From Pseudomonas fulva (GTDB lineage Bacteria > Pseudomonadota > Gammaproteobacteria > Pseudomonadales > Pseudomonadaceae), in NCBI RefSeq assembly GCF_023517795.1, contig NZ_CP082928.1, forward strand, positions 186,001 to 250,000: DNA of 64,000 nt, written 5' to 3'. The translations under genes were made by a program, and so were the position numbers. Within the stretch, counting starts at the first letter, position 1; each line of letters opens with the position of its first letter. Shown here one piece after another: positions 9,119 through 64,000 of the stretch. Under the pieces are notes generated by a model. It worked only from the letters and a program-made list of their open reading frames with translations. It was not told the DNA's origin and did no database searches.

Positions 9119-9121
9119 GAT

Positions 9122-9304: not shown

Positions 9305-9316
9305 ACTAGTTAACTC

Positions 9317-9844: not shown

Positions 9845-9949
9845 AGGCGCCGCATTCTATGGATGCAACCGTGCGCTGTCAAAGGAAATTCCGCCTGTCC
9901 AGCACCTTGGCCGACGACTAGAATCGGCGCTCCGTTCCGCACGAGGTCA

Positions 9950-10534
9950 ATGCCCATGCCGCCCCTGATTCTCGCCTCCAGTTCCCCCTACCGCCGCGAG
10001 CTGCTGAGCCGCCTGCGCCAGCCCTTCGAATGGGCCGCGCCGAGTATCGACGAGTCGCGCCAGGCTGGCGAGCCAGCCGAGGATCTGGTGCGCCGCCTGG
10101 CCCGGGAAAAGGCCGCAGCATTGGCCGAGCGATTCCCCACCCACCTGATCATCGGTTCCGACCAGGTGGCCGTGCTCGACGGCCAGGTGCTCGGCAAGCC
10201 CCACGGCTTCGAACGCGCCCACGCCCAGCTCAGCGCCGCCAGCGGCAAGAGCGTGACCTTCCTGACCGGCCTGGCGCTGCTCGACAGCAGCAGCGGCGCC
10301 TGCCAGGTCGATTGCGTGCCTTATACGGTGCATTTTCGCACCTTGAGCAGCGAACAGATCGCCCGCTACCTGAATGCCGAGGAGCCCTACGACTGCGCCG
10401 GCAGCTTCAAGGCCGAAGGCCTGGGCATCAGCCTGTTTCGCAGTACCGAAGGCAGTGACGTCAACAGCCTGATCGGCCTGCCGCTGATTCGCCTGGTCGA
10501 AATGCTCGACCAGGCCGGCATCGAGATACCCTGA
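9950..10534 (+). CDS. Maf/YceF family nucleotide pyrophosphatase
   Basis: A 194-residue Maf-fold protein with LILASSSPYRRELL at the N-terminus, the acidic IGSDQVAVLDG block and FKAEGLGISLF near the C-terminus. ATG 9950 is chosen because GAGG precedes it; ATG 9956 is an alternative. Family members hydrolyse nucleotides: the YhdE branch acts on dTTP/UTP and the YceF branch on 7-methyl-GTP. The divergent position next to yceD-rpmF is that of yceF in Escherichia coli and favours the 7-methyl-GTP branch. This is inference from context. Confidence 0.93.
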   Translation: MPMPPLILASSSPYRRELLSRLRQPFEWAAPSIDESRQAGEPAEDLVRRLAREKAAALAERFPTHLIIGSDQVAVLDGQVLGKPHGFERAHAQLSAASGKSVTFLTGLALLDSSSGACQVDCVPYTVHFRTLSSEQIARYLNAEEPYDCAGSFKAEGLGISLFRSTEGSDVNSLIGLPLIRLVEMLDQAGIEIP

Positions 10535-10658
10535 AACGCTTTCTTACAACTGCTGAAGATGCCGGACAACGGGGCCTGCCTGATACCGGCATTGAGCCAG
10601 CGCAAGGCTTTCAGGGCTTTGTCAGGGCCGATGCCCCCGATCATCGGCAGATGCATCT

Positions 10659-10695
10659 AAGCTAATGCCGTTAAATTATTGGCTTGGCTTTTTTT
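10659..10695 (+). terminator. Intrinsic terminator downstream of maf
   Basis: The arms AAGCTAA and TTGGCTT (one G-U pair) are followed within three bases by a run of seven T on the plus strand, 125 bp after the maf stop. A second weaker hairpin, CCTCATC with GATGAGG followed by CTTTCTT, lies near 10,766-10,802. The remaining sequence up to 11,040 shows no convincing gene. Confidence 0.6.
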
Positions 10696-11056
10696 AGATC
10701 ATCTAGCTTGCCTCTACCGGATCACCGGACACCCTGCTGACCCCAGACCATTGTCCCGTGACCCGCCTCATCCCAGGCTGGCACGCCCTGATGAGGCTTT
10801 CTTGTATGTCACCCATTCCCCTGCGCATCCCTACCCGCTTCCCGTCTTCCGTGCGGCCGCGGCCTGCCGGAACCTGTGCCCCGCAGACAGCAGCCGGCCT
10901 CTTCGATTGCCCGGTGAGCTGATCGGTATTCGCCGCCGAGTCGAAGCTCGCCGACAAAAACCCACTTCACCAGCCTTCAAGCCCCTGCAGCCAGCACAAG
11001 ACAACCACTGAAAGATCCTCACGACGCCAATTGCATCAGATGAAAAGGAGCCTCAC

Positions 11057-11980
11057 ATGCACATTCGTTCCCTGTTCAGCGCCGGCGTGATCGCCGTCGC
11101 CAGCCTGTTGTCCGCGCCCGCCTGGGCGGCGAGCGAATTCCTGGTCACCACCGACTGGCTGGAGCAGAATCTCGACAACCCCAAGGTGCGCATCATCGAA
11201 GTCAGCGTAGTACCGGGTCTCTATGAGCGCGGTCATATTCCCGGCGCGGTCAACCTGGCCTGGCACAGCGACCTGGTCGACCCGGTCAAGCGCGATATCG
11301 CCAGCCAGCCAGCCCTGCAGGACCTGCTGCGCAAATCCGGCGTGTCGGACGACACCACTACCATCCTCTACGGCGACAACAACAACTGGTTCGCCGCCTG
11401 GGGCGCCTGGGTGTTCGATGTCTACGGTGTGGAGAACGTCAAGCTGCTCGACGGCGGACGGGGCAAGTGGGAAGCGGAGAACCGTGCCCTGAGCAACCGC
11501 GCCAGCAGCCCGGGCAACGGCAACGTCACCCTCAAGGCTGCCAACAAGGAGCTGCGCGCCTTCCTGCCGGACGTGCTCGCCGCTGCCGAGAAACGCAGCG
11601 ATGACCAGTTGGTGGATATCCGTTCCGCCGATGAATACAACGGCAAGGTCTTCGCGCCCCAGGGCGTCCAGGAGCTGGCCGTGCGCGCCGGTCACGTACC
11701 CGGCGCCGTCAACGTTCCATGGGGCCAGGCTGTCGCCGCCGATGGCACCTTCAAGTCTGCCGAGGAGTTGAAGAAGGTCTACGCCGCCGTGGGCATCGAC
11801 GGCAGCAAACCGATCATCACCTACTGCCGGATCGGCGAGCGCTCCAGCCACACCTGGTTCGCCCTGAAGAAGATTCTTGGTTACGAGGTGCGCAATTACG
11901 ACGGCTCCTGGACCGAATACGGCAATGCCGTTGGGGTTCCCGTGGTCAACGTCGCCGGCACAGTCTGGGGTGGCAAGTAA
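11057..11980 (+). CDS. Exported two-domain rhodanese (thiosulfate sulfurtransferase)
   Basis: A 307-residue protein with a signal peptide (cut near AWA-A, residue 24), so it should act in the periplasm. Two rhodanese domains are visible, about residues 28-140 and 170-305. The active loop is in the second, with nucleophile Cys257 in CRIGERSS. The first domain has no cysteine at the matching site, as in classical tandem rhodaneses. AAGGAG precedes the ATG. The next gene encodes a YeeE/YedE carrier, and such carriers take up thiosulfate or sulfur species, so the pair probably serves sulfane sulfur handling. Confidence 0.92.
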   Translation: MHIRSLFSAGVIAVASLLSAPAWAASEFLVTTDWLEQNLDNPKVRIIEVSVVPGLYERGHIPGAVNLAWHSDLVDPVKRDIASQPALQDLLRKSGVSDDTTTILYGDNNNWFAAWGAWVFDVYGVENVKLLDGGRGKWEAENRALSNRASSPGNGNVTLKAANKELRAFLPDVLAAAEKRSDDQLVDIRSADEYNGKVFAPQGVQELAVRAGHVPGAVNVPWGQAVAADGTFKSAEELKKVYAAVGIDGSKPIITYCRIGERSSHTWFALKKILGYEVRNYDGSWTEYGNAVGVPVVNVAGTVWGGK

Positions 11981-51981: not shown

Positions 51982-52686
51982 ATGAGCAAATACAGCCAGA
52001 TCTACAGCGATCTGCTTGCCAGCATCACCAGCGAACGCCTTGAGCGCGGCGCCCGCCTGCCCTCGGAAACCGAGCTGATGGAGCACTACCAGACCAGCCG
52101 CGGCACCGTGCGCAAGGCCATCGAGCAATTGCAGGAACGCGGCTTCGCGCAGAAGATCCACGGCAAGGGCACCTTCGTGCTGTCACGCGCGCCCATCGAA
52201 TTCCAGCTCGGCGGCATCGTCAGCTTTCAGGAGACCTACCCCCGGCTGGGCGGCAACGTGCGCACCGAGGTGGTCGAACTCAGCCAGCTACCGCTGGAAG
52301 GCAGCCTCTGCGAGCACATCCAGGCCGAACAAGGCACCCTGATCACCCGCATCAAACGGGTCAGGCGTATCGATGGCCGGCGGGTGATCCTGGATATCAA
52401 CCACTTCGTCGCCGACCTGATTCCCGGCCTGGATCGCAGCATCGCCGAGCATTCGATTTACCAATACATCGAAAAGACCCTGCAGCTGCAGATCAGCTAT
52501 TCGCAACGAACCATCGAAGCCGTGCCCCGCGGCGCGGACGACCTCAAGCATCTCGACCTGGACGACCAGAGCCACGTGATCGTCGTCAGCAACCAGACCT
52601 TTCTGCAGGATGGCCGACAGTTCGAGTACACCCAGTCCCGGCATACGCTCGATAAGTTTTACTTTTCGGATGTGGCGCGGAGGTAG
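51982..52686 (+). CDS. treR: GntR family trehalose operon repressor
   Basis: A 234-residue regulator of the HutC/TreR type. The winged helix spans about 1-70 (RLPSETELMEHYQTSRGTVRKAIEQL; KIHGKGTFVL). The UTRA effector domain follows (about 90-230; IQAEQGTLITRIKRVRRIDG, SYSQRTIEAV), which senses a sugar phosphate. Divergent from treP with palindromes between. Presumably represses treP-treC and is released by trehalose 6-phosphate. Confidence 0.93.
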   Translation: MSKYSQIYSDLLASITSERLERGARLPSETELMEHYQTSRGTVRKAIEQLQERGFAQKIHGKGTFVLSRAPIEFQLGGIVSFQETYPRLGGNVRTEVVELSQLPLEGSLCEHIQAEQGTLITRIKRVRRIDGRRVILDINHFVADLIPGLDRSIAEHSIYQYIEKTLQLQISYSQRTIEAVPRGADDLKHLDLDDQSHVIVVSNQTFLQDGRQFEYTQSRHTLDKFYFSDVARR

Positions 52687-52786
52687 GGTGCTTAGTGGCC
52701 TGCCATGACTTACGCCAATTTGGCGAAGACAATCACCACATAGGTGTCCGGATTCGCCAGCGATGGTGGTATTAAGGTCAGCAAGG

Positions 52787-53047
52787 CTATTTCTTGAAGG
52801 CCCAACTCCAAGCACGAGAGCACAGGCAAAAAATTACGTAGCCGAACAGAAGCATTGCGGTGCCCAGAAACATCATCACTGCGAGCGCCTGCATATCTTT
52901 CGAAAACTGAGCTGCCGGAATGTAACAATCCGCACCAAAGCCGCGGCAGCCCAAGCTGATGGCGCGCAGCCCGAATGTAAAATACAGGCCAACCGCTGCA
53001 GCTAAAACGACGAAGAAACCGCTGATCACGATTAGTGCTCGATTCAC
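52787..53047 (-). CDS. Small membrane protein of unknown function
   Basis: About 86 residues with two hydrophobic helices (ALIVISGFFVVLAAAVGLYFTF and ALAVMMFLGTAMLLFGYVIF). They are separated by a loop with two cysteines, LGCRGFGADCYIP, which may form an extracytoplasmic disulfide. GTG 53,047 is chosen because AAGGA lies upstream; ATG 53,068 is an alternative. It ends next to treR and lies 64 bp from the left insertion sequence. No family is recognised. Confidence 0.5.
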   Translation of the reverse strand: MNRALIVISGFFVVLAAAVGLYFTFGLRAISLGCRGFGADCYIPAAQFSKDMQALAVMMFLGTAMLLFGYVIFCLCSRAWSWAFKK

Positions 53048-53110
53048 GTCCAGCTTCCTTGTAAGCATTCCAAAGCAATCGAATGCCACACGTAATGGCT
53101 AACGACCTGC

Positions 53111-54021
53111 CTAGGTTTTGTACGAAAAGTAGGTGTGGGTAGAATTTCCGCCATGATTGGCTGGAGGCCCGCATGGCAAAGCGTTACGAACTCTCCGACG
53201 CATCGTGGGAATTGATCAAGTATCTGGTTTCTCCAGAGCAGAAAATGGGTCGCCCACGGAGTGATGATCGCCTGGTACTCCATGCAATCCTGTGGATCCT
53301 CTGCTCGGGCGCTGCCTGGCGTGATCTGCCGAAACGCTTTGGGCCTTAGTAAACGGTGTATCAGCGTTTTCGTGGCTGGCGCGACGACGGTACGTTCGAC
53401 CGGATACTGGAGCACTTGCATATCCGATTAAACCGGGAGGGACTGATGATCTGGACACCTGGATGATCGATTCCGCTGCGGTACGCGCAACCCGAGCCTC
53501 TTCAGGCGCCGGAAAAAGAGGCCTGAAGAACCGCTAGACCATGCTCTGGGACGTAGTCGAGGCGGCGTTCCTACCAAGATTCACATGATCTGTGACGCCA
53601 ATGGCGTTCCATTAGGCTTCATTCTTTCGCCAGGGCAAGCCAGCGATATCGCCTATGCCCAGCCGTTGCTGGATCAGGTGCGAACTCCCGGTAAGCCGGG
53701 GCGTCCACGTAAACACAGTCACTGGTTACTGGCTGACAAAGCCTGTGACGCGCAACACCTGCGCCATTACTGCGACCGTTACCGAATATAGCCGGTGATC
53801 CCGCTGAGTGCGATGCCACGCAAGCCTCGGCCTGGCTTGCCCCGACTCTTTGATCGTCCAAAGTATCGGCAACGTACCATCATTGAGCGGATGTTTGGCT
53901 GGCTGAAATAGAACCGCAGAGTAGGCACTCGCTACGACAAGCTGGCGAGAAGCTATTCAGCCATGGTCACGCTGGCCTGCAGCCTGCGTTGCATCCGGCA
54001 ATACTTTTCGTACAAACCTAG
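53111..54021 (+). mobile_element. IS5 family (IS427-like) insertion sequence, left copy
   Basis: About 911 bp with matching ends: CTAGGTTTTGTACGAAAAGTA on the left and its complement on the right, with one base missing in a T run. CTAG at both borders fits the target preference of this group. The transposase inside is inactive. Confidence 0.8.
53173..54018 (+). pseudogene. IS5 family transposase, interrupted
   Basis: Begins MAKRYELSDASWELIKYL and reads into GAAWRDLPKRFGP, then stops at TAG 53,347 where the right copy encodes GPWSTVYQRF. Later segments DANGVPLGFILSPGQASD, LLADKACD, LRHYCDRYRI (then TAG) and RPKYRQRTIIERMFGWLK (then TAG) are in a second frame, normally reached by frameshifting. 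At least three stop codons make it non-functional. Confidence 0.85.
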
Positions 54022-54127
54022 GCTGCTGCCCGGTATGCGGCTCTGTTGTTCACTAGGTTGATAGAACGTTTGAAGAGGGATAGGCCGGGTAAATGAGGCC
54101 GCGGAGCGCAACCTATATGGCCCCATG

Positions 54128-54724
54128 TTAATGAAAAAGCATGAACCCGCCGAATAGCACTAGGGCTATTCCTGACCCCTTGTTTATTATTGCTCTGGAA
54201 ACTTCGTTCTTATACATCACGGCAGAAAACAATGTGTAAGCAACCAGGGTGGAAGAAGTAAAAAAAGCAAAAGTGAAAGTCATCGTTACTAGCTGCGGCG
54301 CTATCGCGTAGTCTTTCGAAAGGAACTGGGGGAAAAAAGAAGCTATGAAAATGAAGATTTTTGGATTGCTTATGGATATTAGTGCTGCCTCGATTAAACA
54401 TGTCATATAGCTTTTTCTTACCTTGCCATTCTCAATGGCTTGAAAATCGCTAGAAAGCAATATCTTCATTCCGATGTATATTAAATATAGAGCCCCGAGC
54501 GTTTTGATGATAAATATAGCTTTGTCGTTGTTAAGTATAACTAGCCCTGACGATGCCATTGCGCAAATAATAAATATCGATAATGTGTTTCCTAGTATAG
54601 AAGCTGTTGAAAGTTTGAAGCCATTGTTTCCAGATAGCCTCATTGCATGAATAACACTTGGGCCAGGGGAAGCGGCAGAGATAAAGGCGGAGAGGCAAAA
54701 TATGAGCCAGGAGTCAAACGGCAT
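54128..54724 (-). CDS. LysE/RhtB family amino-acid exporter
   Basis: A 198-residue membrane protein with about six helices. SAASPGPSVIHAMRLSGNNG matches the LysE N-terminal signature, and LGALYLIYIGMKIL and SISNPKIFIFIASFFPQF are also typical. ATG 54,724 is chosen because CAGGA lies at good spacing. The family exports amino acids such as lysine, homoserine or threonine. It is the last gene of the island; its likely role is export of the pathway's product or of a modified amino acid. Confidence 0.88.
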   Translation of the reverse strand: MPFDSWLIFCLSAFISAASPGPSVIHAMRLSGNNGFKLSTASILGNTLSIFIICAMASSGLVILNNDKAIFIIKTLGALYLIYIGMKILLSSDFQAIENGKVRKSYMTCLIEAALISISNPKIFIFIASFFPQFLSKDYAIAPQLVTMTFTFAFFTSSTLVAYTLFSAVMYKNEVSRAIINKGSGIALVLFGGFMLFH

Positions 54725-54749
54725 AGCTAATTCCTGATTTTGATACATG

Positions 54750-54769
54750 GGAGCCGGACGCCCGGCTCC
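54750..54769. terminator. GC-rich hairpin between carbamoyltransferase and exporter genes
   Basis: GGAGCCGG and CCGGCTCC form a perfect 8-bp stem. The T-rich tract (GATTTTTATT) lies on the plus-strand side, opposite to the direction of the genes. So either it dampens antisense transcription or it attenuates LysE expression. Confidence 0.45.
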
Positions 54770-54795
54770 AGATTTTTATTCTACAGCGCCGCTTC

Positions 54796-56460
54796 TTATG
54801 TTCGCTTGATCTCTTTTTTTGAATTTGCTTTATTGTAAATCAAATAATCGCCAATAAATATGGCATCAAGCCCGCTCTCATATAGGCATTCAATGCAGTC
54901 AGCAGGGGAGCTAACGATTGGCTTTCCTTTCGTGTTTAACGAGGTGTTCAATACCATAGGGATTCCGGATAGCTTATGGTACTCACTTATCAGGTCGTAA
55001 TATTTTTTATTGTCTTCGCGGGAAACAGTCTGAACTCGCGCAGTGCCATCGACGTGGCTAATAGCGGCAACCAAATCTCTATATTTTTCACGAACCTTCA
55101 TAGTGATTAGCATAAATGGCGAAGGAGCGGGCACATGGAACCAATCTGCTGCATGCTCAGATAAGACAGATGGAGCCAATGGTCTCCAGCTTTCTCTTTG
55201 CTTAACGATATTAACTCGATCTCGTACAGCTGCCGACGTCGGAGCCGCAAGTATTGACCTATTGCCAAGGGCACGAGGGCCAAACTCCATTTTACCTTGG
55301 CACCAACCAATCACCATTCCAGAGTTTATTAATTTCGCGGCGTCCTGGTGAGGGTTTTCTACTATTTCAAATGGGATCTTTTCGGAGGTGAGATAGCTTT
55401 CGATCTCATTAGATGAGAAGTGCGGCCCTAAATATACCTGTTCTTTGACTACTGGTCGCGTCTCTTGATCACCTACGTGCAATAGCATAGCGGCACCGAT
55501 AGCTGCTCCAGCATCATTGGCGGCTGGTTGAATATAAATATTCTCAACGAAGTCAAGCTCGGCGATAAGTCCGTTAGCGTTGCAGTTAAGTGCCACACCA
55601 CCAGCTAAACAAAAGTTGTGATTACCAGTTTTTTTGTAAAGGTCTTCTGCAAGGAATACGAAAGCTTTTTCTATTGCTTTCTGCACTGCATATGCGAGAT
55701 CTTTAGACTTGTCCGAAAACGCTTTTTTGTCGGCAATATTTTTTAGCTCACGCATTGCCTCTCTATCTATGAAGTAACTGTCGCCAGCAAACCTGAGAAC
55801 ACTGTCGATGATTGATACTCGCCCGGATCCGTACGAGGCAAGGCCCATCGTTTTGCCTTCCTGACCTATGTACGAGTACAGTCCACATAGGCTAGTGATG
55901 TATGTGTATAAGTGACCCAGTGAGTCTTTGATAGGGTAGCTTTTTAATTTCTCAATTGATATCCCATTACCATGGTACAACGAGGTTGCCTCATCTTCGC
56001 CACGACCATCTGCTATCAATATATTTGAGCGATCAAATCCGCTTGAGAAAAATGTACCCGCAGCATGGCACAGATGGTGGCGGACACTAATAAAATTTCC
56101 AAGTCCACTTTCCCGCATGCTTTGTATAGCATGCCTATAGGTTGAAAGGTTTCGCGTGATCTGTGTCATTTGCCCTAGAGCATGCGTATCGTCGTGATTA
56201 ACTGTGTTCTGCTCAAATGGCCTGTTGTTTGCGATGAATGACGAGTAGTCAAACGTAACGCCAATATTTTTTACGTTTTCTAATTTTAACCCAGCTTCTT
56301 TTAGGCAGAAATCAATTGCTTCGTGTGGAAAGTTCGTTGAGTGGCGGATGCCATCGAACCGCTCTTGTTCGACCGCGGCAACTAAAACTCCATCGTATAG
56401 AATGGCAGCAGATGTATCATGAAGAAGGTTTACACCCAGGTAAGCATTTTTAATGGTCAT
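54796..56460 (-). CDS. O-carbamoyltransferase (NodU/CmcH/TobZ family)
   Basis: A 554-residue enzyme. The Kae1-like N-terminal domain opens with YLGVNLLHDTSAAIL, carries the metal histidines in HHLCHAA (128-134) and DGRGED (151-156), and continues with GLASYGSG and LAGGVALNCNANG. The C-terminal domain has EFGPRALGNRSILA and RESWRPLAPSV. Members make carbamoyl-AMP from carbamoyl phosphate and ATP and transfer it to a hydroxyl, as in tobramycin, cephamycin and Nod factor synthesis. Two upstream oxygenases could supply the hydroxyl. A terminator separates it from them, so it may have its own promoter. Confidence 0.92.
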   Translation of the reverse strand: MTIKNAYLGVNLLHDTSAAILYDGVLVAAVEQERFDGIRHSTNFPHEAIDFCLKEAGLKLENVKNIGVTFDYSSFIANNRPFEQNTVNHDDTHALGQMTQITRNLSTYRHAIQSMRESGLGNFISVRHHLCHAAGTFFSSGFDRSNILIADGRGEDEATSLYHGNGISIEKLKSYPIKDSLGHLYTYITSLCGLYSYIGQEGKTMGLASYGSGRVSIIDSVLRFAGDSYFIDREAMRELKNIADKKAFSDKSKDLAYAVQKAIEKAFVFLAEDLYKKTGNHNFCLAGGVALNCNANGLIAELDFVENIYIQPAANDAGAAIGAAMLLHVGDQETRPVVKEQVYLGPHFSSNEIESYLTSEKIPFEIVENPHQDAAKLINSGMVIGWCQGKMEFGPRALGNRSILAAPTSAAVRDRVNIVKQRESWRPLAPSVLSEHAADWFHVPAPSPFMLITMKVREKYRDLVAAISHVDGTARVQTVSREDNKKYYDLISEYHKLSGIPMVLNTSLNTKGKPIVSSPADCIECLYESGLDAIFIGDYLIYNKANSKKEIKRT

Positions 56461-56683
56461 TATATCGTCCTTGAGTTTTGATGTTATGGTTTGGCGAAGT
56501 AGATAGTTAGGGCCGGCACTGAGATGTACTTGATGATTTTTGATAAGAGGAAGTTGCTTTGGTTAGATTCAATCCCCAATGAATAACGCGGGCTTGGAGG
56601 TCTACTGGAATCAGGGCTATGACGAAGCTAGAGCATTCAAAAGGACTGCTATATAGCGAGCTTAACTTTTCGGATATCTAAAA

Positions 56684-56717
56684 GAAATTGCACCTGCTCA
56701 ATTCAGGTGCATTTCCT
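56684..56717 (-). terminator. Intrinsic terminator after the VioC/AsnO-like gene
   Basis: GCACCTG (56,690-56,696) and CAGGTGC (56,704-56,710) form a perfect stem extended by AAATT/ATTT pairs. CTTTT follows on the minus strand, just past the stop at 56,719. The 220 bp beyond it, up to 56,461, should hold the carbamoyltransferase promoter. Confidence 0.8.
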
Positions 56718-56718
56718 C

Positions 56719-57660
56719 CTAGAAGGAATGGTCACCAATGGCTCCTACAGCACGCCAAACACTAACCATGTCTTTTTCATCTGCAAGATCACAATGCCGT
56801 GACCCGTATACTCGTTTTAGCCAACGCCGTCCTTCAACAGCGCCACGGCCATGTATGCATCGATAGTTATTGAATACGAGAAGATCTCCTGGCTCCAAGA
56901 CGATGTCTATTGCAACTGCTTCAGCAGCCTCTATCCATGCGGCGACTGCCGTTTCTGCCTCATGATTTTCCGCAATAGTATAGATTGCACAACGAGACTC
57001 TTCGTACCCATCTATCTGCTTCAAGAATGGAGATGGTGGTGTATAAAGTGTATATCCATTCAAAGCAAATGAATCATCATGTTTATAAGTAAACAACGGT
57101 CGGCGCAGAATGCTGATAATTTCACTTGGCAGAAATTTATTTACCTCGTCGACTACCGCCACACGAGTAGCTGCTCCAGCGTCGTTATTAAGCGCAATAA
57201 GTGCTGCCGCCTCTGGTCGCGCTTGCCGAGGAAGAAAAGGGCTTTCTACATGTAGATTGAATTTGACCCTACCTGCGTTAGACAAGGTCTTTTCCCAACC
57301 TGCGATAGGGTGAACGTCTTGTAGAATTGCACCTTCCTTTTCCTCCGGATAGCCGAAGTGCCGAAGACCAATCGCATGAGTGATTCCTACTAGAACCGCA
57401 TCAGTCAGTTCAGCGCTACCGACCTCCCATTCGTCGGCCAAGAGGTTAATTGGCAGATTCTTTAAAACTGCGAAAGGGCGGCGCGACTCAAAAATACGCT
57501 TATACAATAAATCTACTGGGACGCCGGAACGCAGAACAATCTCTGCATAACGTTTGTCACTTCTGTCAAAACCGGTTTTCAGTGCAGATGAAAGCTGTGC
57601 CCTCAGTTCGTCACGAACAGTATCGCTAATTGTGGAGATTACAACGTCAGTGGTTTTCAT
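56719..57660 (-). CDS. Clavaminate synthase-like (VioC/AsnO-type) Fe(II)/2-oxoglutarate oxygenase
   Basis: A 313-residue oxygenase. The metal site is His137-x-Glu139 in FNLHVESPFLP and His270 in NNYRCIHGRGAV, with Arg283 for 2-oxoglutarate. HxE instead of HxD, the SPFLPRQARPEAAALIALNND stretch and the length fit the AsnO/VioC group, which hydroxylates the beta carbon of amino acids. EPGDLLVFNNYRCIHGRG is the family's C-terminal block. It starts 16 bp after azlD. Its substrate may be a free amino acid or a residue of the GGTV peptide. Confidence 0.85.
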   Translation of the reverse strand: MKTTDVVISTISDTVRDELRAQLSSALKTGFDRSDKRYAEIVLRSGVPVDLLYKRIFESRRPFAVLKNLPINLLADEWEVGSAELTDAVLVGITHAIGLRHFGYPEEKEGAILQDVHPIAGWEKTLSNAGRVKFNLHVESPFLPRQARPEAAALIALNNDAGAATRVAVVDEVNKFLPSEIISILRRPLFTYKHDDSFALNGYTLYTPPSPFLKQIDGYEESRCAIYTIAENHEAETAVAAWIEAAEAVAIDIVLEPGDLLVFNNYRCIHGRGAVEGRRWLKRVYGSRHCDLADEKDMVSVWRAVGAIGDHSF

Positions 57661-57676
57661 GTCAGTCCCTTAACAG

Positions 57677-57985
57677 TCAAAAAGTCACGATTGCTGCATA
57701 TACTAGTGTTGAGCCACAGGCAGTGAGCATCAACCCGGTGCGTGTAAATAAGGTGGCAAAGGCAGCGACCAAGATGCTAGCTATTGCCGCCGTCGCCATA
57801 ATATTTACTTCGACCCATATCAAATATACAGAAAAGTTTATGAAGACGGCCATCGGAAGCGCCTGTTCAGTGATCTTTCTTCCTGATGGTGATAATTTTA
57901 GATTAATAAACGCCGGTGCTACTCGAACCAGCAGGCTCGTTATGATAAGCGCAATAACTACTAAAGCATGATCATTAAGGTTCAT
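57677..57985 (-). CDS. azlD: AzlD-like branched-chain amino-acid export subunit
   Basis: A 102-residue membrane protein with about three to four helices, beginning MNLNDHALVVIALIITSLLVRVAP, typical of AzlD. It overlaps azlC by 11 bp. AzlD pairs with AzlC to export valine, leucine, isoleucine and analogues. Its presence within a modification operon points to a small amino-acid-like product. Confidence 0.88.
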   Translation of the reverse strand: MNLNDHALVVIALIITSLLVRVAPAFINLKLSPSGRKITEQALPMAVFINFSVYLIWVEVNIMATAAIASILVAAFATLFTRTGLMLTACGSTLVYAAIVTF

Positions 57986-58691
57986 ACGTTAACCTGCTAA
58001 GTCTCCAAGTACTGAACGCAATACTTGGTAGCCAGAACCAAGATTTACCTAATAGTGCAATAAAAGCTAGGGCTGCCGCGATACAAAGTGCTATCTCAAT
58101 GAGGCGGCGTTCCCAGGGAGCAGATATACGGGGTACGCGACTTTTTAGCTGCTCGAACGAAAGCACTAAGAGAACTATGCTTGCCGGAAAGCCCAGGTTC
58201 ATCTCAGGGCTGAACCAGCTTGCGGGGATTAGCGCAGCAAACAATGCTCCTGCGAAGGTAGACGATACCCACGCGAGATAGATTGTTAGTCGCGTGCTGA
58301 AAACTGCAGCTAATTGATCCCTCTCCTGTTCAAGTGCGTAGGCTTCGTCACCAACTAAATGTGCCATGAATGCCCGGGGTACAGGACGTGTTGGAAGGCG
58401 AGCCAACGTTGTGATAACTATTGGTATATATCGGCAGTTAATAGATATCGCAACGATGAGCATCGTGAGAAACCCTATTCCTTGCTCGGCAAGGGGCAGC
58501 AAGGCGAACTGCCCGCTGCCTGAGTAGCCCATAGCACTGAGCAACAAGACTTCGAATGGAGTCCAGTTGGATTGGGAGGCCAGAACCCCGAACAGCATGC
58601 CTGTGGGAGCGACAGCTAAGGCGGTTGGCAGGGCTCTACGAAATGCCATCCAGGCATATAGGACTGGTGACGATTGGACTTGGACGGTCAT
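57975..58691 (-). CDS. azlC: AzlC-like branched-chain amino-acid exporter
   Basis: A 238-residue membrane protein. AVAPTGMLFGVLAS, SAMGYSGSGQFALLPL (AzlC signature AxxxAGxxQF), SINCRYIPIVITT and HLVGDEAYAL are characteristic. The start overlaps the stop of the upstream oxygenase as ATGA. With AzlD it forms the export permease. Overlaps on both sides show that it belongs to the biosynthetic transcript. Confidence 0.9.
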   Translation of the reverse strand: MTVQVQSSPVLYAWMAFRRALPTALAVAPTGMLFGVLASQSNWTPFEVLLLSAMGYSGSGQFALLPLAEQGIGFLTMLIVAISINCRYIPIVITTLARLPTRPVPRAFMAHLVGDEAYALEQERDQLAAVFSTRLTIYLAWVSSTFAGALFAALIPASWFSPEMNLGFPASIVLLVLSFEQLKSRVPRISAPWERRLIEIALCIAAALAFIALLGKSWFWLPSIAFSTWRLSRLTYEP

Positions 58692-59434
58692 GGCGTTTTC
58701 AGTAATGAGCTTGTTGCTAAGGCAAGGCGTTCGTGAGTTGGCCCATAGGATCGTTTATGCCATGGACTGATTTCGATCACCCAAATATCTCTGTAGCCAT
58801 CGGAGCCTTCGGCGGGTGTGATATTTGAGGCATAGTGAATGTAGCGTTCATCATCAATTAGCACAGCCTGATTTTCTTCAAGCAAAGCGCGATGAACAAT
58901 TTCATTGGATGCAGGATCAATAATTTGTGTTTCTCCCCCCTCAACGTTATGGCGCTTTGCTACAACGATAACGCTGAATTGGTGACCATCACGATGCGGC
59001 CCTTCGGGAACCGTCACCCCATTAAACTCGGAGTTCACAATGACCCTGATCTGGTTCACGTTGACGTGGTAACTTTCTGAAAAATCAACAGGCAAGCTAT
59101 CGAGAACAGCAGTTACCAGGGGAGTGGGGTCGCACTCTAGCTGTTCTCTGTGGCGTAAGACACCTCCTGCTTCAGCAAGACGGATGAATTCAGCGGATTG
59201 GATATATTTCCGTTTCGGAAGTAATGCGTAAATCCACTGGCCTTCCTCCCAGTAGGTGAAGTATTGATTCAAGCGGATGTTTCGTAGTCTCTTCAAGCTA
59301 TGTCCATCGCGTGGCATAGAGTTGAAAGATTCAATTACTTTTTCAGACATCTCTGGTGTGTTAATGATGTCGTAACCAAATTTCGAAAATTGGCTGTTGT
59401 TAGCAATAGCTTTGGCTTCAGATGCGATTCCCAT
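58688..59434 (-). CDS. 2OG-Fe dioxygenase family protein (PF10014, isoleucine-dioxygenase-like)
   Basis: A 248-residue oxygenase. EGPHRDGHQFSVIVV contains His147-x-Asp149, the distal His200 lies in DERYIHYASNITP, and Arg215 follows in GYRDIWVIEI, giving a complete site. VEGGETQIID between them is a hallmark of PF10014, whose studied members (IDO, BsmA) hydroxylate free isoleucine, leucine or methionine. Here it lies 13 bp after the radical SAM gene and overlaps azlC. It may act on valine or threonine, free or in the peptide. Confidence 0.87.
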   Translation of the reverse strand: MGIASEAKAIANNSQFSKFGYDIINTPEMSEKVIESFNSMPRDGHSLKRLRNIRLNQYFTYWEEGQWIYALLPKRKYIQSAEFIRLAEAGGVLRHREQLECDPTPLVTAVLDSLPVDFSESYHVNVNQIRVIVNSEFNGVTVPEGPHRDGHQFSVIVVAKRHNVEGGETQIIDPASNEIVHRALLEENQAVLIDDERYIHYASNITPAEGSDGYRDIWVIEISPWHKRSYGPTHERLALATSSLLKTP

Positions 59435-59447
59435 GATTTATCTCATT

Positions 59448-60932
59448 TTATGCAGGTTGGAGATCGAAAGTAGCTATTTCAAAAGGCTGAAGAGCATCAA
59501 TGTGTTTTCGCGTAATACCGCGATAGAAATCACAAGCTGCTGGTTCTACTACGTCAATGGCCGCGTACTTCTTCTCTAAAGGGCCTAGGCAAAGACCAGC
59601 GCAGAAACCTTCGATCTCGCAGCCCCTGCAAAAATCAGGGTTCTCATGCCGTAACTGTGCATGCTCGATATAGGCCGGAGCATCCAAAAGCTCGGGGCCT
59701 AACTCAATTGAACCTAATAGTGTAGATCCGGCTTTGCAGGCGAACACGGATCCATTCGGTTCAATACTAAATTGTGCACCCTTTGCTGAGCAGTTCTTAA
59801 AGCCCCGCTCGGCCACAGCATCATGTCCCAAGAGTACTTGAAATATCTGGTGCCAATAACCTGTTAAGACCACGCCCCTTTGACGACCATATTCAACAAC
59901 TTTCCAAAGGCGATCTACGATATTCTCTGCCCCGAACGTGCTATAGAAGGTCGGATCAAAATCTACAACAACGCCAATCTCCCAGGCCCCCACATCGACC
60001 GCTAGATCGACGATAGACTCGTTAAAGTCATCCCAAGTTGCCGATGTCAGTGCAGCGTTGATCGCGATGCGGTTGCCTTTAGCTTGTAGTTGCCGCAGGC
60101 CTTGCATCACAACTGGTGTGCTGTCGTCACCATTTTTTAATGGTCTGCTTGGGCTAGTGGGTGAGTCGAAACTTACGCATACTGCTACCTGATGGCGGGC
60201 GAATTTTTCCGCCACTTCTTCAGTTATAAGCGATCCATTGGTAACAGTGGAGTACGAAATATGCATGCCATCTTTGGAGCCATCCCCAAAGCGATCCAAC
60301 ACCGCATCAATTGCCTTCCAGTTTAATAACGGCTCACCACCAAAGAATTGAACCATTACTCTATACATGCCACCCGCTCGGGACGCAGCTAGCGCCTTTT
60401 CTACATAATACACGGCATCTTGAGGTTTCATATGCCGATTTTTTTTGTCAAATTGATGCTCGAACCTTTCCTTGGAGGCATACATCGAGTTGTTGATGTC
60501 TACTTTGATCTCGTCCTGAGCAACAACTCGAATCAGCTCTACTTTTGCTACCTCTTCTTCAACAGACATCTCCTTGCCTTGAATACCCTCAAAACAATAG
60601 GTGCATCCAAAGTTACAAGCATTCGCGAGAATCAGCTGGATAATATTAACTTTTTTCTCGACTGGCCTACTTTCAGACAGGTTCTGTTCTTCTTCATGGA
60701 TTAAGAAGCCGCGAGCGGCTAGCTGCTGGATTAGCTCGGCCTCCCTTGTGGGGGCTTCTAGTTCAATCCATGAGCTAGGGATCATACGTCCATTCTTGAA
60801 GCTCTCTAAGACGTCGACTGCTGCTTTATCAAGCATGCATAGCCCGCCTCTCTGCCGATGGTAGACTGACGTACGGTCGTCCATTCGTCTAAGAACTACA
60901 TCTCTGGAAAGGGTATATTTATTTTTTTCCAT
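59448..60932 (-). CDS. Radical SAM/SPASM peptide-modifying enzyme
   Basis: A 494-residue maturase. Residues 1-85 resemble a PqqD-like RiPP recognition element (CMLDKAAVDVLESFKNG, LIQQLAARGFLI). The radical SAM motif is Cys106/110/113 in ANACNFGCTYCFEG, followed by QFFGGEPLLNW. The SPASM domain has Cys381, Gly394-x4-Cys399, Cys435, Cys438, Cys444, Cys448 and Cys467, enough for two auxiliary clusters. Such enzymes install cross-links, ethers or D-residues in precursor peptides. The short GGTV peptide gene 67 bp upstream is the obvious substrate. Confidence 0.93.
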   Translation of the reverse strand: MEKNKYTLSRDVVLRRMDDRTSVYHRQRGGLCMLDKAAVDVLESFKNGRMIPSSWIELEAPTREAELIQQLAARGFLIHEEEQNLSESRPVEKKVNIIQLILANACNFGCTYCFEGIQGKEMSVEEEVAKVELIRVVAQDEIKVDINNSMYASKERFEHQFDKKNRHMKPQDAVYYVEKALAASRAGGMYRVMVQFFGGEPLLNWKAIDAVLDRFGDGSKDGMHISYSTVTNGSLITEEVAEKFARHQVAVCVSFDSPTSPSRPLKNGDDSTPVVMQGLRQLQAKGNRIAINAALTSATWDDFNESIVDLAVDVGAWEIGVVVDFDPTFYSTFGAENIVDRLWKVVEYGRQRGVVLTGYWHQIFQVLLGHDAVAERGFKNCSAKGAQFSIEPNGSVFACKAGSTLLGSIELGPELLDAPAYIEHAQLRHENPDFCRGCEIEGFCAGLCLGPLEKKYAAIDVVEPAACDFYRGITRKHIDALQPFEIATFDLQPA

Positions 60933-60968
60933 CAGTCAGGCCCTGATTTATTCCTTTAAATTTGGAGA

Positions 60969-60993
60969 GCACGTCGCGCTGGGCGCGACGTGC
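60969..60993 (-). terminator. Strong hairpin between precursor and radical SAM genes (likely attenuator)
   Basis: GCACGTCGCGC and GCGCGACGTGC form a perfect 11-bp stem with a 3-nt loop, 7 bp past the precursor stop. The following minus-strand bases TCTCCAAATTT are only weakly T-rich. Such stems usually let the precursor mRNA outnumber the enzyme mRNA. Confidence 0.75.
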
Positions 60994-60999
60994 AAAGCC

Positions 61000-61182
61000 T
61001 TACTTGCTCAAGCAGTCTTTGAGGCGGCTGCGTTGGCTGGTGGAGAGCGTACCGCCAACGGTGCCACCGACAGTACCGCCGACGGTACCACCAACAGTAC
61101 CGCCAACGGTGCCACCGACAGTACCGCCAACGGTGCCACCGACAGTGCCGCCAATAGTGGAAATGCTAATAGAGTTTTTCAT
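61000..61182 (-). CDS. GGTV-repeat precursor peptide (RiPP-like)
   Basis: A 60-residue peptide. Residues 1-10 (MKNSISISTI) precede eight GGTV units and one GGTL (11-46); the 14-residue tail ends DCLSK. The repeat holds only Gly, Thr and Val/Leu: no aromatic residue for a cyclophane and no Cys for a thioether, so Thr or Val must be the modified sites. AGAGG lies 7-8 bp before the ATG. The DNA repeat changes only synonymously between most units, showing selection on the peptide. It lies directly upstream of the SPASM gene. Cleavage sites and final product are unknown. Confidence 0.85.
   Translation of the reverse strand: MKNSISISTIGGTVGGTVGGTVGGTVGGTVGGTVGGTVGGTVGGTLSTSQRSRLKDCLSK
61045..61152 (-). 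repeat. Nine 12-bp tandem units with 24-bp higher-order period
   Basis: On the coding strand, odd units read GGCGGYACTGTY and even units GGTGGYACCGTY, apart from the final GGCGGTACGCTC. The alternation of synonymous codons shows that the array grew by 24-bp pairs. It lies wholly within the precursor gene. Confidence 0.9.
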
Positions 61183-61903
61183 GGTAATTCCTCTTTACGC
61201 TGATTATGGGCCGAACTTGACCCGTTGAATGCACTCTCGATATCGATCATGCAAACTCTGGTCACGAAGTTGGTAGCCAATCGAACGCAGCGGGATAGAG
61301 GCGTTCGCACATGTTCGAGGAGTGATCGAACATTTTCCTTGTGCGCTACTTTGAGTAGCTAACATTGTGAGTCAGCAATACTCAGGTCGTGAAAATCCTT
61401 TAAGCACTAAGCTCTAGATGAAAATACGCTGATTGAGAAAGTCACCGCTGGAAAGTGATGGGCAGCAGGAGACCTCAAACGGATATTCGAAAATGTCTTT
61501 TCGGATTTCTTGAGGGGGAGATGAGATAGGGGGAAGTCGAACTAGATGTTGCGCAATATAAATTTTGATATGACATCAGGCTTCGTCCTTTGAATTTCTA
61601 CATCCTGTGTCGATCATAAAACGCATTTTTTATTGATGTCAATCAAAAATGGGCTCATTTTTTCATGAACATCAATCTAGGTGTTTTATTTTTTTATCAT
61701 TTTAAAACAGTTGCTTACATGTGATCGCCCTGTTGTGGTGCGAATATTTTGCTCTGTTATGGTGCAATAGTCGCAAAGAAATTCGAGACGAAACATGGTC
61801 GACTTTAGGCATTGCCCTGACGAACGTAGCTTCTCGCTGGAACGTAGCTGAGCGATCTTCAACATATGGGAGCTGGCAGGAAATGGTCGGCATATCTGAT
61901 TCT
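61183..61903. other. Long non-coding leader region of the island
   Basis: About 720 bp between the precursor start and the right IS contain no convincing gene and are AT-rich. They must include the operon promoter. Visible are a direct repeat of TGTTRTGGTGCRA (about 61,731 and 61,755, 24 bp apart) and two copies of GAACGTAGCT near 61,822-61,852. Either may be a regulator site. A weak CATAAT lies at 61,203-61,208 on the minus strand but is too close to the start. Confidence 0.4.
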
Positions 61904-62566
61904 CTAGGTTTTGTACGAAAAGTATTGCCGCATGCAATGCAGGCTGCAGGCCAGCGTGACCATGGCTGAAAAGCTTCTCGCCAGCTTGTCGTAGCGAGTG
62001 CCTATTCTGCGGTTCTCTGTCAACCAGCCAAACATCCGCTCAATGATGTTGCGCTGCCGATACTTTGGACGATCAAAGAGTCGGGGCAAGCCAGGCCGAC
62101 GCTTGCGTGGCATGGAACGCAGCGGGATCACCGGCTGTATTCGGTAACGGTCGCAGTAATGGCGCAGGTGTGCCGCCTCAACTACATCCCAGAGCATGGT
62201 CTAGCGGTTCTTCAAGCCCCCTTTTTTCCGGCACCTGAAGAGGCTCGGGTTGCGCGTACCGTAGTGGAATCGATCATCCAGGTGGCCAGATCGATCAGTC
62301 CCTCCCGGTTTAATCGGATGTGCAAGCGCTCCAGTATCCGGTCGAACGTACCGTCGTCACGCCAGTCACGAAAACGCTGATACACCGTTGACCAAGGCCC
62401 AAAGCGTTCCGGCAGATCACGCCAGGCAACGCCCGAGCAGAGGATCCAAAGGATTGCGTGGAGTACTAGGCAATCATCACTGCGTGGGCGACCATTTCTG
62501 TTCTGGAGAAACCAGATCCTAGATCAAGTTCCACGATGCGTCGGAGAGTTCGTAACGCTTTACCAT
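61904..62566 (-). pseudogene. IS5 family transposase, deleted and interrupted
   Basis: ATG 62,566 reads MVKRYELSDASWNLI and stops immediately at TAG. Later pieces include the GPWSTVYQRF segment missing from the left copy, then MLWDVVEAAHLRHYCDRYRIQPVIPL and RQRNIIERMFGWLTENRR to the end. The catalytic middle with the DANGVPL and LLADK blocks is absent, so the copy cannot transpose itself. Confidence 0.85.
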
Positions 62567-62627
62567 GCGGGCCTCCAGCCAATCATGGCGAAAATTTTAC
62601 CCGCACCTACTTTTCGTAAAAACCTAG
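61904..62627 (-). mobile_element. IS5 family (IS427-like) insertion sequence, right copy with internal deletion
   Basis: About 724 bp with the same ends as the left copy (GTTTTGTACGAAAAGTA...; CTTTTCGTAAAAAC) and CTAG at both borders, in inverted orientation. About 187 bp present in the left copy between the end of the first frame and LRHYCDRYR are missing. Confidence 0.8.
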
Positions 62628-62986
62628 GGTGGAAAGCCAGCAAAAACCTCCCTAAGCACGAGCCTTATAGGCTCTAAAGTGTCATGTGGAGTCCGCCTAA
62701 CCATGCTCCCTCGAACCGTGCCAAGCGAATGGCGCACCGCTTCCATCCCATCGGTTCAAAGGCCAGAGAGATGTTGACTTCTACTTTTCTTGGATGTTGA
62801 ATCCGCCCCTTATTTCCACCCCCTCTCTCAAGTGGTGAACGAAGTGCCCTGCTCCAGCCAACAAGCCTGATACCGACGACGGTCCATCGTGCCTGATGGC
62901 TGCCTGCGCACCTGCGTGGCCGCTTCCCACATTTTGCCCGCCTGAACCCTTGTCGTCGGTTTTCCCAATTGCAATGGAGAAAACCC
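62628..62986. other. Intergenic region without recognised gene
   Basis: The 359 bp between the right IS and the RNA ligase gene return to GC-rich composition. A short palindrome, AGCCTTATAGGCT, lies near 62,660. Overlapping open frames here are unsupported by start sites or composition. The ligase promoter is expected in this stretch. Confidence 0.5.
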
Positions 62987-63847
62987 ATGAACATGGATTT
63001 CCGCGCCTATGCGCAAAACCTCGAGCTACACAAATACCCACGCACGCCCCACCTGGAGAGCTCTCGCCTGCAGCCGGGCGATACCGATAGCGATCAAGTC
63101 TGTTATGCCTCGCTGAGCGGGCAATGGCTGGTCGTCGAGGAAAAACTGGACGGCGCCAATGCCGGCATCAGTTTCTCCGCGGCCGGTGAATTGCTGCTGC
63201 AATCGCGTGGCCACTACCTGACCGGTGGCGGTCGGGAGCGCCAGTTCAACCTCTTCAAGCAGTGGGCCGTGGCCCACGAAGACTGGTTGATGAGCCGCCT
63301 TGAAGACCGCTACGTGCTGTTCGGCGAGTGGATGCACAAGAAGCATTCGGTGTTCTACGACCGCCTGCCGCACTTCTTCTGCGAGTTCGACATCTGGGAC
63401 CGGGCCCATGGCCTGTTCCTGTCGACCACCGCCCGGCGCCAGCTGCTGCGCGACGGCCCGGTGCTGTCGGTGCCGGTGCTTCATGAAGGGCTGGCACCAG
63501 CGCGGCTCAAGGATCTGCTTGAGCTGCTCGGCGACTCGCTGGCCAAGTCGCCGGCATGGCGCAGCGCCTTCGAAGCCACGGTGCAGCGCGAAGGCCTGGA
63601 CCTGGAACGGGCCTGGCGGCAGTGCGACAAGTCGACGGTGATGGAAGGCCTGTACCTGAAGCTCGAAGACGAGAAACAAATCAACGGACGCCTCAAGTGG
63701 GTTCGCCAGGACTTCGTCCAGGCGATCCTCGAAGCGGACCAGCATCATGCGAACCAGCCATTCATTCCCAATCTGCTGGCCGACGGGGTAGATCTCTATG
63801 CCCCTCGCCTGTCGATGGACTGGGATGGCCAGCGATCTGGTTATTGA
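62987..63847 (+). CDS. RNA ligase family protein (Rnl2/DRB0094-like nucleotidyltransferase)
   Basis: A 286-residue protein with a covalent nucleotidyltransferase core: motif I EEKLDGAN (nucleophile Lys53), motif III YVLFGEWMHKKHSV, motif IV EGLYLKLEDE and motif V GRLKWVRQDF. Its size fits a minimal RNA ligase without large extra domains. ATG 62,987 follows GGAGA; an earlier ATG has no site. The next gene starts 14 bp downstream and may encode the end-healing partner, as in RNA-repair operons. Confidence 0.87.
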   Translation: MNMDFRAYAQNLELHKYPRTPHLESSRLQPGDTDSDQVCYASLSGQWLVVEEKLDGANAGISFSAAGELLLQSRGHYLTGGGRERQFNLFKQWAVAHEDWLMSRLEDRYVLFGEWMHKKHSVFYDRLPHFFCEFDIWDRAHGLFLSTTARRQLLRDGPVLSVPVLHEGLAPARLKDLLELLGDSLAKSPAWRSAFEATVQREGLDLERAWRQCDKSTVMEGLYLKLEDEKQINGRLKWVRQDFVQAILEADQHHANQPFIPNLLADGVDLYAPRLSMDWDGQRSGY

Positions 63848-63861
63848 AGGAGAACAACAAA

Positions 63862-64000
63862 ATGGACATTCGACAACTGCAAAGCCTGGTTCCAGAACCG
63901 GGCCAGCGCTTCGACGCGAAGGCATGCCTGGAGGCGATTCCGGCCCTGCAACGTTTGGCCAGCACGCCCCAGGATCCGCACTACCACGCCGAGGGCGACG
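63862..64000 (+). CDS. Start of a gene paired with the RNA ligase (possible HD-type end-healing enzyme)
   Basis: Only 46 codons lie in the window, beginning MDIRQLQSLVPEPGQRF after AAGGAG. The last visible residues, DPHYHAEGD, resemble the opening of HD-domain phosphohydrolases found beside or fused to kinases in bacterial RNA-repair pairs. That reading is tentative because metal-binding residues and any P-loop lie beyond the edge. Confidence 0.55.
   Translation, partial: MDIRQLQSLVPEPGQRFDAKACLEAIPALQRLASTPQDPHYHAEGD

What the first reader, a model, noticed from the sequence alone, without database searches (positions are those of the whole stretch)
54128..61182. Candidate new RiPP-like pathway: GGTV-repeat peptide, SPASM enzyme, two oxygenases, carbamoyltransferase and amino-acid exporters
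Seen: a 60-residue peptide of eight GGTV and one GGTL units, followed in one direction by a SPASM enzyme with an RRE-like N-terminus, a PF10014 oxygenase, AzlC, AzlD, a VioC/AsnO-like oxygenase, an O-carbamoyltransferase and LysE. Most of these genes overlap or nearly touch. Known: each family modifies or exports amino acids or peptides. Inferred: Thr or Val in the repeat is changed by radical chemistry and hydroxylation, one hydroxyl is carbamoylated, and the product is cut to amino-acid or dipeptide size. I do not recall this combination being described.
Basis: partly seen in the sequence, partly recalled or inferred. Interest (0 to 1): 0.95.

Follow-up and report, generated by a model that had tools for sequence, protein, structure and literature searches.

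The report
Repeat peptide for cyclopropane amino acids
A gene island in a Pseudomonas bacterium carries a close relative of a pathway published in 2022 that is predicted to turn the valines of a small repeating peptide into cyclopropane amino acids, plus extra genes that would likely oxidise, cap and export the product, a combination we did not find described.

Summary
A 60-residue peptide of eight GGTV and one GGTL units precedes a SPASM radical SAM enzyme and six further genes on one strand, in a low-GC island between two IS remnants. The repeat is under strong selection: in 19 peptides, 1179 of 1188 differences between inner units are at third codon positions.

The first five genes are tvgABCDE, the poly-cyclopropylglycine (TVG) pathway published in 2022 (PMC9062424), where TvgB joins the two methyl groups of repeat Val residues. 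All 19 close relatives returned by a genome scan have the repeat peptide and the PF10014 oxygenase; 16 have AzlC.

What we did not find described is the extension: a VioC/AsnO-type oxygenase, a NodU/TobZ-type carbamoyltransferase and LysE. The oxygenase link is solid: it recurs at tvg loci in two other genera and diverges in step with TvgB (r 0.95, 11 pairs). The carbamoyltransferase and LysE link rests on two near-identical islands and lies beyond a terminator-like hairpin.

Best reading: the peptide is likely a scaffold for cyclopropylglycine, which would be released, beta-hydroxylated (cleonine type), carbamoylated and exported as an amino-acid antimetabolite. No chemistry was tested.

The parts
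61000..61182 (-). tvgA-type precursor peptide, 60 aa: short N-terminus, 8 GGTV + 1 GGTL, conserved tail LxxxL[ST]K
   Evidence: same peptide with three synonymous changes only in L010
60933..60999 (-). hairpin between tvgA and tvgB, possibly setting peptide:enzyme ratio
   Evidence: -28.2 kcal/mol, 0 of 200 shuffles as good, z -4.66; role inferred
59448..60932 (-). tvgB: SPASM radical SAM enzyme, predicted cyclopropylglycine synthase
   Evidence: 70% identical to the L017 (Halomonas anticariensis) gene; best structure match 8vpo TigE; Cys motifs invariant in 34 rows
58688..59434 (-). tvgC: PF10014 Fe/2-oxoglutarate oxygenase
   Evidence: Pfam E 4.7e-31; H147, D149, H200, R215 invariant in 19 rows (window and L010-L027; L028 left out because its hit is split)
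57975..58691 (-). tvgD: AzlC-type amino-acid exporter subunit
   Evidence: Pfam E 4.6e-27
57677..57985 (-). tvgE: AzlD-like small subunit
   Evidence: position and 33-52% identity to the syntenic AzlD-like genes outside L010; only the L022 copy, of five tested, passes the Pfam cut-off
56719..57660 (-). VioC/AsnO-type Fe/2-oxoglutarate oxygenase, predicted free amino-acid beta-hydroxylase
   Evidence: Pfam TauD; NCBIfam GntD/VioC below cut-off; model pLDDT 88, top matches AsnO, KDO1, NapI, VioC; H137, H270, R283 invariant and E139 in at least 90% of 24 rows
56689..56711 (-). terminator-like hairpin just after the VioC-like gene
   Evidence: (-19.1 kcal/mol for 56670-56720, z -4.29)
54796..56460 (-). 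NodU/TobZ-type O-carbamoyltransferase
   Evidence: Pfam E 2.9e-67 and 3.2e-47; TobZ best solved relative by sequence
54128..54748 (-). LysE/RhtB-type amino-acid exporter
   Evidence: Pfam E 1.4e-19; weakly constrained between window and L010, dN/dS 0.84
53110..54020 (+). broken transposase copy, left edge of the island
   Evidence: two parts 92% and 93% identical to the right copy, opposite orientation; only short open frames; edges approximate
61905..62640 (-). broken transposase copy, right edge of the island
   Evidence: edges approximate

Best explanation
The island is a TVG-type cassette (tvgABCDE) extended by a VioC/AsnO-type oxygenase, a NodU/TobZ-type carbamoyltransferase and a LysE-type exporter, in which the GGTV peptide likely serves as a throw-away scaffold whose valines are predicted to become cyclopropylglycine and would then be released, hydroxylated, O-carbamoylated and exported as a modified amino acid. 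Shown here: gene content, orthology to the published cassette, selection on the repeat, intact metal-binding motifs, coupling of the VioC-like gene to tvgB. Shown elsewhere for the Halomonas enzyme: Val to cyclopropylglycine at up to three sites of a four-repeat peptide (PMC9062424). Inferred: (1) TvgB here makes up to eight cyclopropylglycines per peptide; (2) host peptidases free the amino acid, since no peptidase is among the island's genes; (3) TvgC and the VioC-like enzyme act on the free amino acid, at C4 and at C3 (beta) respectively, the beta product being cleonine-like; (4) the carbamoyltransferase caps a hydroxyl, which would mask a reactive cyclopropanol; (5) AzlCD and LysE export it as a branched-chain amino-acid antimetabolite.
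For: Core identity: 70% (SPASM), 58% (TvgC), 49% and 40% (AzlC, AzlD) to L017, the record of the strain used in the TVG work. Repeat peptide at 19 of 19 close loci and PF10014 at 19 of 19. Cyclopropyl-synthase fold neighbour: 8vpo is TigE (that TigE acts on an Ile-containing motif is recalled). An actinobacterial relative, L029 (52% identity), has Ile in place of Val (GGTI/AGTI), so the variable branched residue is the likely target. VioC-like gene: at the tvg locus in L010, L024 and L025, with no match at E 1e-5 elsewhere in the other 16 close tvg genomes; 7 of 34 homologues share the exact longest-contig length with one of 64 TvgB homologues compared, chance mean 0.12; identity matrices correlate at 0.949 over 11 pairs, 0 of 5000 permutations. 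Free-amino-acid chemistry: PF10014 members hydroxylate free Leu, Ile and Thr (PMC3684760 passages), the top folds for the VioC-like model are Asn, Lys and Arg oxygenases, PolO, a NodU homologue, carbamoylates a free hydroxy amino acid (PMC4029187 passages), and both exporters are amino-acid families. L024 adds a threonine dehydratase and an AMP-binding protein by Pfam; L025 has a frame like the former and a long NRPS-like frame, read by eye; this fits an amino-acid product. dN/dS of 0 to 0.28 for seven of eight genes between window and L010, from few differences.
Against: No chemistry tested. The carbamoyltransferase and LysE were seen with tvg only in the window and L010 (98% and about 96% identical), i.e. 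one acquisition, behind a 258-base gap with a terminator-like hairpin. Related carbamoyltransferases (36-42% identity) are common in the genus: 45 of 296 other genomes. LysE looks weakly constrained (dN/dS 0.84). Seven of the 11 pairs in the co-divergence test rest on equal contig lengths, not on seen synteny, and two of the other four (window, L010) are near-copies. The TVG authors expect TvgC to oxidise the peptide and TvgD/E to hydrolyse and export it (PMC9062424, section 9). The VioC-like enzyme has only about 20% identity to solved relatives, one of which (NapI) is a desaturase, so C3 hydroxylation is a family guess.
Confidence: 0.6

Rival explanations
1. Peptide-level tailoring: both oxygenases and the carbamoyltransferase act on the cyclopropylglycine-bearing peptide, and short peptides (such as TVGG-sized units) are cut out and exported.
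For: The TVG authors expect this order. TvgB acts on peptides with several repeats. The peptide has a conserved tail LxxxL[ST][KR] in 19 of 19, as if a recognition element persists.
Against: AzlC, LysE, PF10014 and VioC/AsnO relatives are free amino-acid proteins; no peptidase among the island's genes.
Confidence: 0.25
2. The carbamoyltransferase and LysE form a separate passenger unit carried in the same IS-bounded island; the pathway proper ends with the VioC-like oxygenase.
For: 258-base gap with a terminator-like hairpin, a promoter-like hit just before the carbamoyltransferase (the scan as a whole finds fewer promoter-like sites than shuffles, 8 against a mean of 12.2); only two near-identical islands have them.
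Against: Same strand, same IS-bounded segment in both isolates; carbamoyltransferase dN/dS 0.12; its nearest relatives in 296 other genomes of the genus are at 36-42% (45 genomes), so it is not a copy of a common genus gene; hydroxylation with carbamoylation of an amino acid is a known pairing.
Confidence: 0.3
3. The GGTV frame is a low-complexity accident or a glycine-zipper membrane peptide, not a precursor.
For: Weak glycine-zipper matches, all below cut-off; one of four weak database matches is called SlyB; DNA has a 24-base period.
Against: 19 of 19 syntenic copies, inner-unit changes almost only at third codon positions, and a published substrate of TvgB with the same repeat.
Confidence: 0.02

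Closest known systems
TVG pathway, tvgABCDE of Halomonas (Litchfieldella) anticariensis, Kostenko et al. 2022, PMC9062424
   Same: Repeat TVGG precursor, SPASM enzyme 70% identical, PF10014 oxygenase, AzlC and AzlD-like membrane proteins, same order
   Different: The window adds a VioC-like oxygenase, a carbamoyltransferase and LysE, sits between IS remnants, and shows no AraC-type regulator in the frames of 52000-64000, whereas 10 of 19 loci have a gene of that cluster nearby (two of them checked by Pfam)
Massilia sp. Root335 (L024) and Pseudoduganella namucuonensis (L025) tvg loci
   Same: tvgABC followed by an orthologous VioC-like oxygenase (52-55%)
   Different: A threonine dehydratase and an AMP-binding gene (L024, Pfam) or a similar frame and a long NRPS-like frame (L025, read by eye) instead of AzlCD, carbamoyltransferase and LysE
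Rhizorhapis suberifaciens tvg locus (L020)
   Same: tvgABC followed by a second Fe/2-oxoglutarate oxygenase
   Different: That oxygenase is of the WelO5 family by Pfam and keeps a His-x-Asp pair (LHND), so it looks like a hydroxylase rather than a halogenase (motif rule recalled)
TigE (PDB 8vpo) and relatives
   Same: Closest solved structure to the SPASM enzyme (E 1.1e-34)
   Different: Only about 31% identity; different, Ile-containing motif (recalled)
Hil operon of Pantoea and Pseudomonas (PMC3684760)
   Same: Two oxygenases in tandem, one PF10014, with exporters in some, acting on a branched-chain amino acid
   Different: Starts from free Ile; no peptide or radical SAM gene in the operon as described there
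Polyoxin carbamoylpolyoxamic acid branch (PolO, PMC4029187)
   Same: NodU-type carbamoyltransferase on a free hydroxy amino acid
   Different: Different substrate, no peptide scaffold

Membership tests
TVG (poly-cyclopropylglycine) pathway | precursor with repeated TVGG motif beside the radical SAM gene | tested here: met
TVG (poly-cyclopropylglycine) pathway | tvgB orthologue | tested here: met
   70% identity over residues 1-494 to L017
TVG (poly-cyclopropylglycine) pathway | tvgC oxygenase and tvgD/E membrane proteins in the same order | tested here: met
   the AzlD call rests on synteny
TVG (poly-cyclopropylglycine) pathway | cyclopropylglycine formed from repeat Val | not testable with these tools
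   shown for the Halomonas enzyme only (PMC9062424)
Clavaminate synthase-like amino-acid oxygenases (VioC, AsnO) | His-x-Glu...His iron site and family fold | tested here: met
   H137-x-E139, H270, R283; top folds AsnO, KDO1, NapI, VioC
Clavaminate synthase-like amino-acid oxygenases (VioC, AsnO) | C3 hydroxylation of a free amino acid | not testable with these tools
   no assay
NodU/TobZ carbamoyltransferases | Carbam_trans_N and Carbam_trans_C domains | tested here: met
   HHLxHAA shared with TobZ
NodU/TobZ carbamoyltransferases | carbamoyl transfer to a hydroxyl | not testable with these tools
   no assay
Sactipeptide/ranthipeptide (thioether) systems | conserved Cys in the core of the precursor | tested here: not met
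   no Cys in the repeats; among the 19 tails a Cys only in L010 (as in the window) and L025; the thioether maturase models listed match far below cut-off
RiPP recognition element (RRE) in the SPASM N-terminus | PqqD-like peptide-binding domain | tested here: inconclusive
   residues 1-80 modelled at block means of 78-94 pLDDT and the N-terminus aligned to that of TigE; not compared on its own

The most novel reading that the evidence does not exclude
A ribosome-made repeat peptide works as a printing template for a rare free amino acid: each GGTV unit yields a cyclopropylglycine that interchangeable second oxygenases turn into cyclopropanol amino acids (a ribosomal route to cleonine), here capped with a carbamate as a protected, secreted branched-chain amino-acid poison carried on a mobile island.
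Probability: 0.2. Interest if true: 0.8.

Novelty: new variant of a known kind. Interest (0 to 1): 0.55.

Why it matters
The TVG authors left the final product of the pathway open (PMC9062424, section 9). The variants seen here (AzlCD only; VioC-like oxygenase plus carbamoyltransferase and LysE; VioC-like oxygenase plus threonine dehydratase and AMP-binding or NRPS-like gene; WelO5-family oxygenase) point to one answer that can be tested: the repeat peptide is a way to make several copies of a cyclopropane amino acid per translation event, with tailoring modules swapped afterwards. If true it would be a peptide-scaffold route to cleonine-type amino acids and a source of new oxygenases and carbamoyltransferases for small strained amino acids.

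Tried and rejected
Ideas rejected: a wholly new pathway (core published); tandem-repeat artefact; thioether or other Cys chemistry; Thr as the radical target (published data point to Val only); halogenation in L020 (His-x-Asp kept); phage or plasmid spread (59 pattern matches in viral contigs but none a relative; 29 plasmid records matched, all under 60% identity). No clean empty site was found in the 38 genomes searched with each flank: strong matches to the left and right flank fall in different genomes, apart from the window genome itself and the near-relative G001, where they lie on separate contigs. The precursor search found only four weak matches, as expected if such tiny frames are rarely called. 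The genome scan is incomplete: Paraburkholderia megapolitana has an 82% identical TvgB but no locus came back from it. Papers: ten searches, many of whose listed papers are unrelated. Seen in part: PMC9062424 (abstract, sections 4, 7, 9, passages), and passages only of PMC11002830, PMC3684760, PMC13194151, PMC8532670, PMC4029187 and PMC10885120. A 2024 paper on radical SAM cyclopropyl synthases is recalled but did not come up; the figures and supplement of PMC9062424 were not seen, so the extended gene set could already be shown there. No cleonine biosynthesis paper was noticed in the listing (15 of 20 shown).
Full report
What is there. The peptide gene has a good start region and codes for eight GGTV and one GGTL unit. 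The island has about 42-50% GC against about 60-63% around it. It is bounded by two broken transposase copies in opposite orientation, 92-93% identical in their matching parts; four other places in the genome match both parts of the element. A second isolate, Pseudomonas sp. URMO17WK12:I2 (L010), carries the same island at about 96.5% DNA identity, also with the IS copy at its edges.

Is it more than chance. The genome scan with a TvgB alignment (two exact peptide patterns, so a lower bound) returned 43 loci: 19 close ones (L010-L028, 61-98% identity), two more distant ones (L029 at 52%, L030 at 35%), one fragment (L050) and 21 distant actinobacterial ones (30-34%). All 19 close loci have a GGTV-repeat peptide directly upstream, with 4 to 12 units, and all end in LxxxL[ST][KR] (L026 has one further residue). 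In 19 peptides (window plus L011-L028) 150 of 173 units are exactly GGTV; among inner units, 1179 of 1188 base differences are at third codon positions, whereas of the single changes possible in a GGTV unit one third are silent. The peptide sequence is therefore selected, while its length drifts.

What it is. The core is the TVG pathway. Kostenko et al. (PMC9062424; abstract, sections 4, 7 and 9 and passages read) named tvgABCDE in Halomonas anticariensis and showed that TvgB joins the two gamma carbons of Val in the TVGG repeats to give cyclopropylglycine. L017 is the record of that strain (FP35 = DSM 16096); window genes are 70, 58, 49 and 40% identical to its tvgB, C, D and E. The predicted structure of the window enzyme is closest to TigE, 8vpo (mean pLDDT 77). 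All 19 loci have TvgC, 16 have AzlC and 15 AzlD (L012 ends before it; L020, L024 and L025 lack both; the L028 tvgB and tvgC hits are split between frames). A gene of one protein cluster lies close to tvg in 10 loci; the two members given to Pfam are AraC-type regulators. No such gene was seen among the frames of window 52000-64000.

The extension. The VioC/AsnO-type oxygenase belongs to a small family: 34 homologues at E 0.001 in a search of 5.8 billion proteins. It lies at the tvg locus in L010, Massilia (L024) and Pseudoduganella (L025). The other 16 close tvg genomes have no match at E 1e-5, nor has L030; L029's genome has one weak match, E 3.8e-9. In 392 genomes drawn from the Massilia family only the Massilia one matched at E 1e-20. 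Seven homologues share their exact longest-contig length with one of 64 TvgB homologues, and over 11 pairs the identity matrices of the two proteins correlate at 0.949, 0 of 5000 permutations. The model (pLDDT 88) matches AsnO, KDO1, NapI and VioC best, enzymes that act on free amino acids, and the iron site and 2-oxoglutarate Arg are kept. The carbamoyltransferase has both NodU-type domains and TobZ as best solved relative by sequence. Apart from the window genome and G001, 45 of 298 genomes of the genus have a relative at E 1e-60, all at 36-42% identity; of 19 tvg genomes seven match at E 1e-30, but only L010's with a close copy (98%), the others at 37-41%. It and LysE follow a 258-base gap with a terminator-like hairpin.

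How it likely works. TvgB makes cyclopropylglycine at the repeats (shown for the Halomonas enzyme, inferred here). No peptidase is among the island's genes, the exporters belong to amino-acid families, PF10014 members hydroxylate free Leu, Ile and Thr at C4 (PMC3684760 passages), VioC, AsnO and KDO1 hydroxylate C3 of free amino acids (names), and PolO, a NodU homologue, carbamoylates a free hydroxy amino acid (PMC4029187 passages). C3 hydroxylation would give a cleonine-type cyclopropanol (exact structure recalled; cleonine is called a methylcyclopropanol-containing residue of valgamicin C in PMC13194151 passages). A carbamate could mask that group. By analogy with the IDO and Hil operons, which make isoleucine-derived compounds (the Bacillus one a conditional antibiotic, its action presumably reversed by common amino acids), the product may be a branched-chain antimetabolite. 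The threonine dehydratase next to tvg in L024 (a similar frame in L025) fits that idea but is not proof.

Results against this reading. The TVG authors expect peptide-level oxidation and processing. The carbamoyltransferase and LysE link is one acquisition; LysE shows little constraint between the two islands (dN/dS 0.84 on 19 differences). The C3 and C4 assignments are family guesses, and one of the close folds, NapI, is a desaturase.

Verdict. Observation confirmed; interpretation partly supported; a new variant of a known pathway, with a solidly linked extra oxygenase and a plausible but thinly supported carbamoylation and export module.

Noticed in passing
L029, about 8,300-8,500 and 8,519-11,455: Actinocrinis relative with an Ile version of the repeat (GGTI/AGTI, eight units) before two SPASM genes: a natural Val-to-Ile swap at the reacting residue.
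   Followed up: partly
L030, about 8,290-11,392: Anaerocolumna relative with a short peptide holding GGTIGSV twice and two SPASM genes.
   Followed up: partly
L020:8941-9891: Second oxygenase of the WelO5 family (Pfam) in the Rhizorhapis tvg locus, with His-x-Asp kept.
   Followed up: partly
L031-L049, L051, L052: 21 actinobacterial loci with a SPASM enzyme 30-34% identical; the ones read have a different conserved small peptide (MAEVKK...SPDKGNAPTI) upstream, and 18 of 21 show two or more carbamoyltransferase places nearby; L034 also has a PhyH oxygenase and an MFS transporter (the output was cut).
   Followed up: partly
L024:13282-16404 and L025:13333-20983: Threonine dehydratase and AMP-binding protein beside tvg in L024 (Pfam), a similar frame and a long NRPS-like frame in L025 (by eye): possibly self-protection and use of the amino acid in a peptide.
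   Followed up: no
L050:10073-10510: Pseudomonas sp. LD120 has only a 145-aa SPASM remnant, between genes related to those around the tvg locus in L016 and L027: probably a decayed locus.
   Followed up: no
P0118 (protein): A 405-aa protein whose first part is TvgB-like and whose end is PF10014: probably a deletion that joined neighbouring tvgB and tvgC, or an assembly error.
   Followed up: no
window 60933-60999: Strong hairpin between peptide and enzyme genes (-28.2 kcal/mol, z -4.66).
   Followed up: no
window 62969-63847 (+): Open frame with a KLDGANAG stretch like a nucleotidyltransferase or ligase active site (recalled), just outside the island.
   Followed up: no
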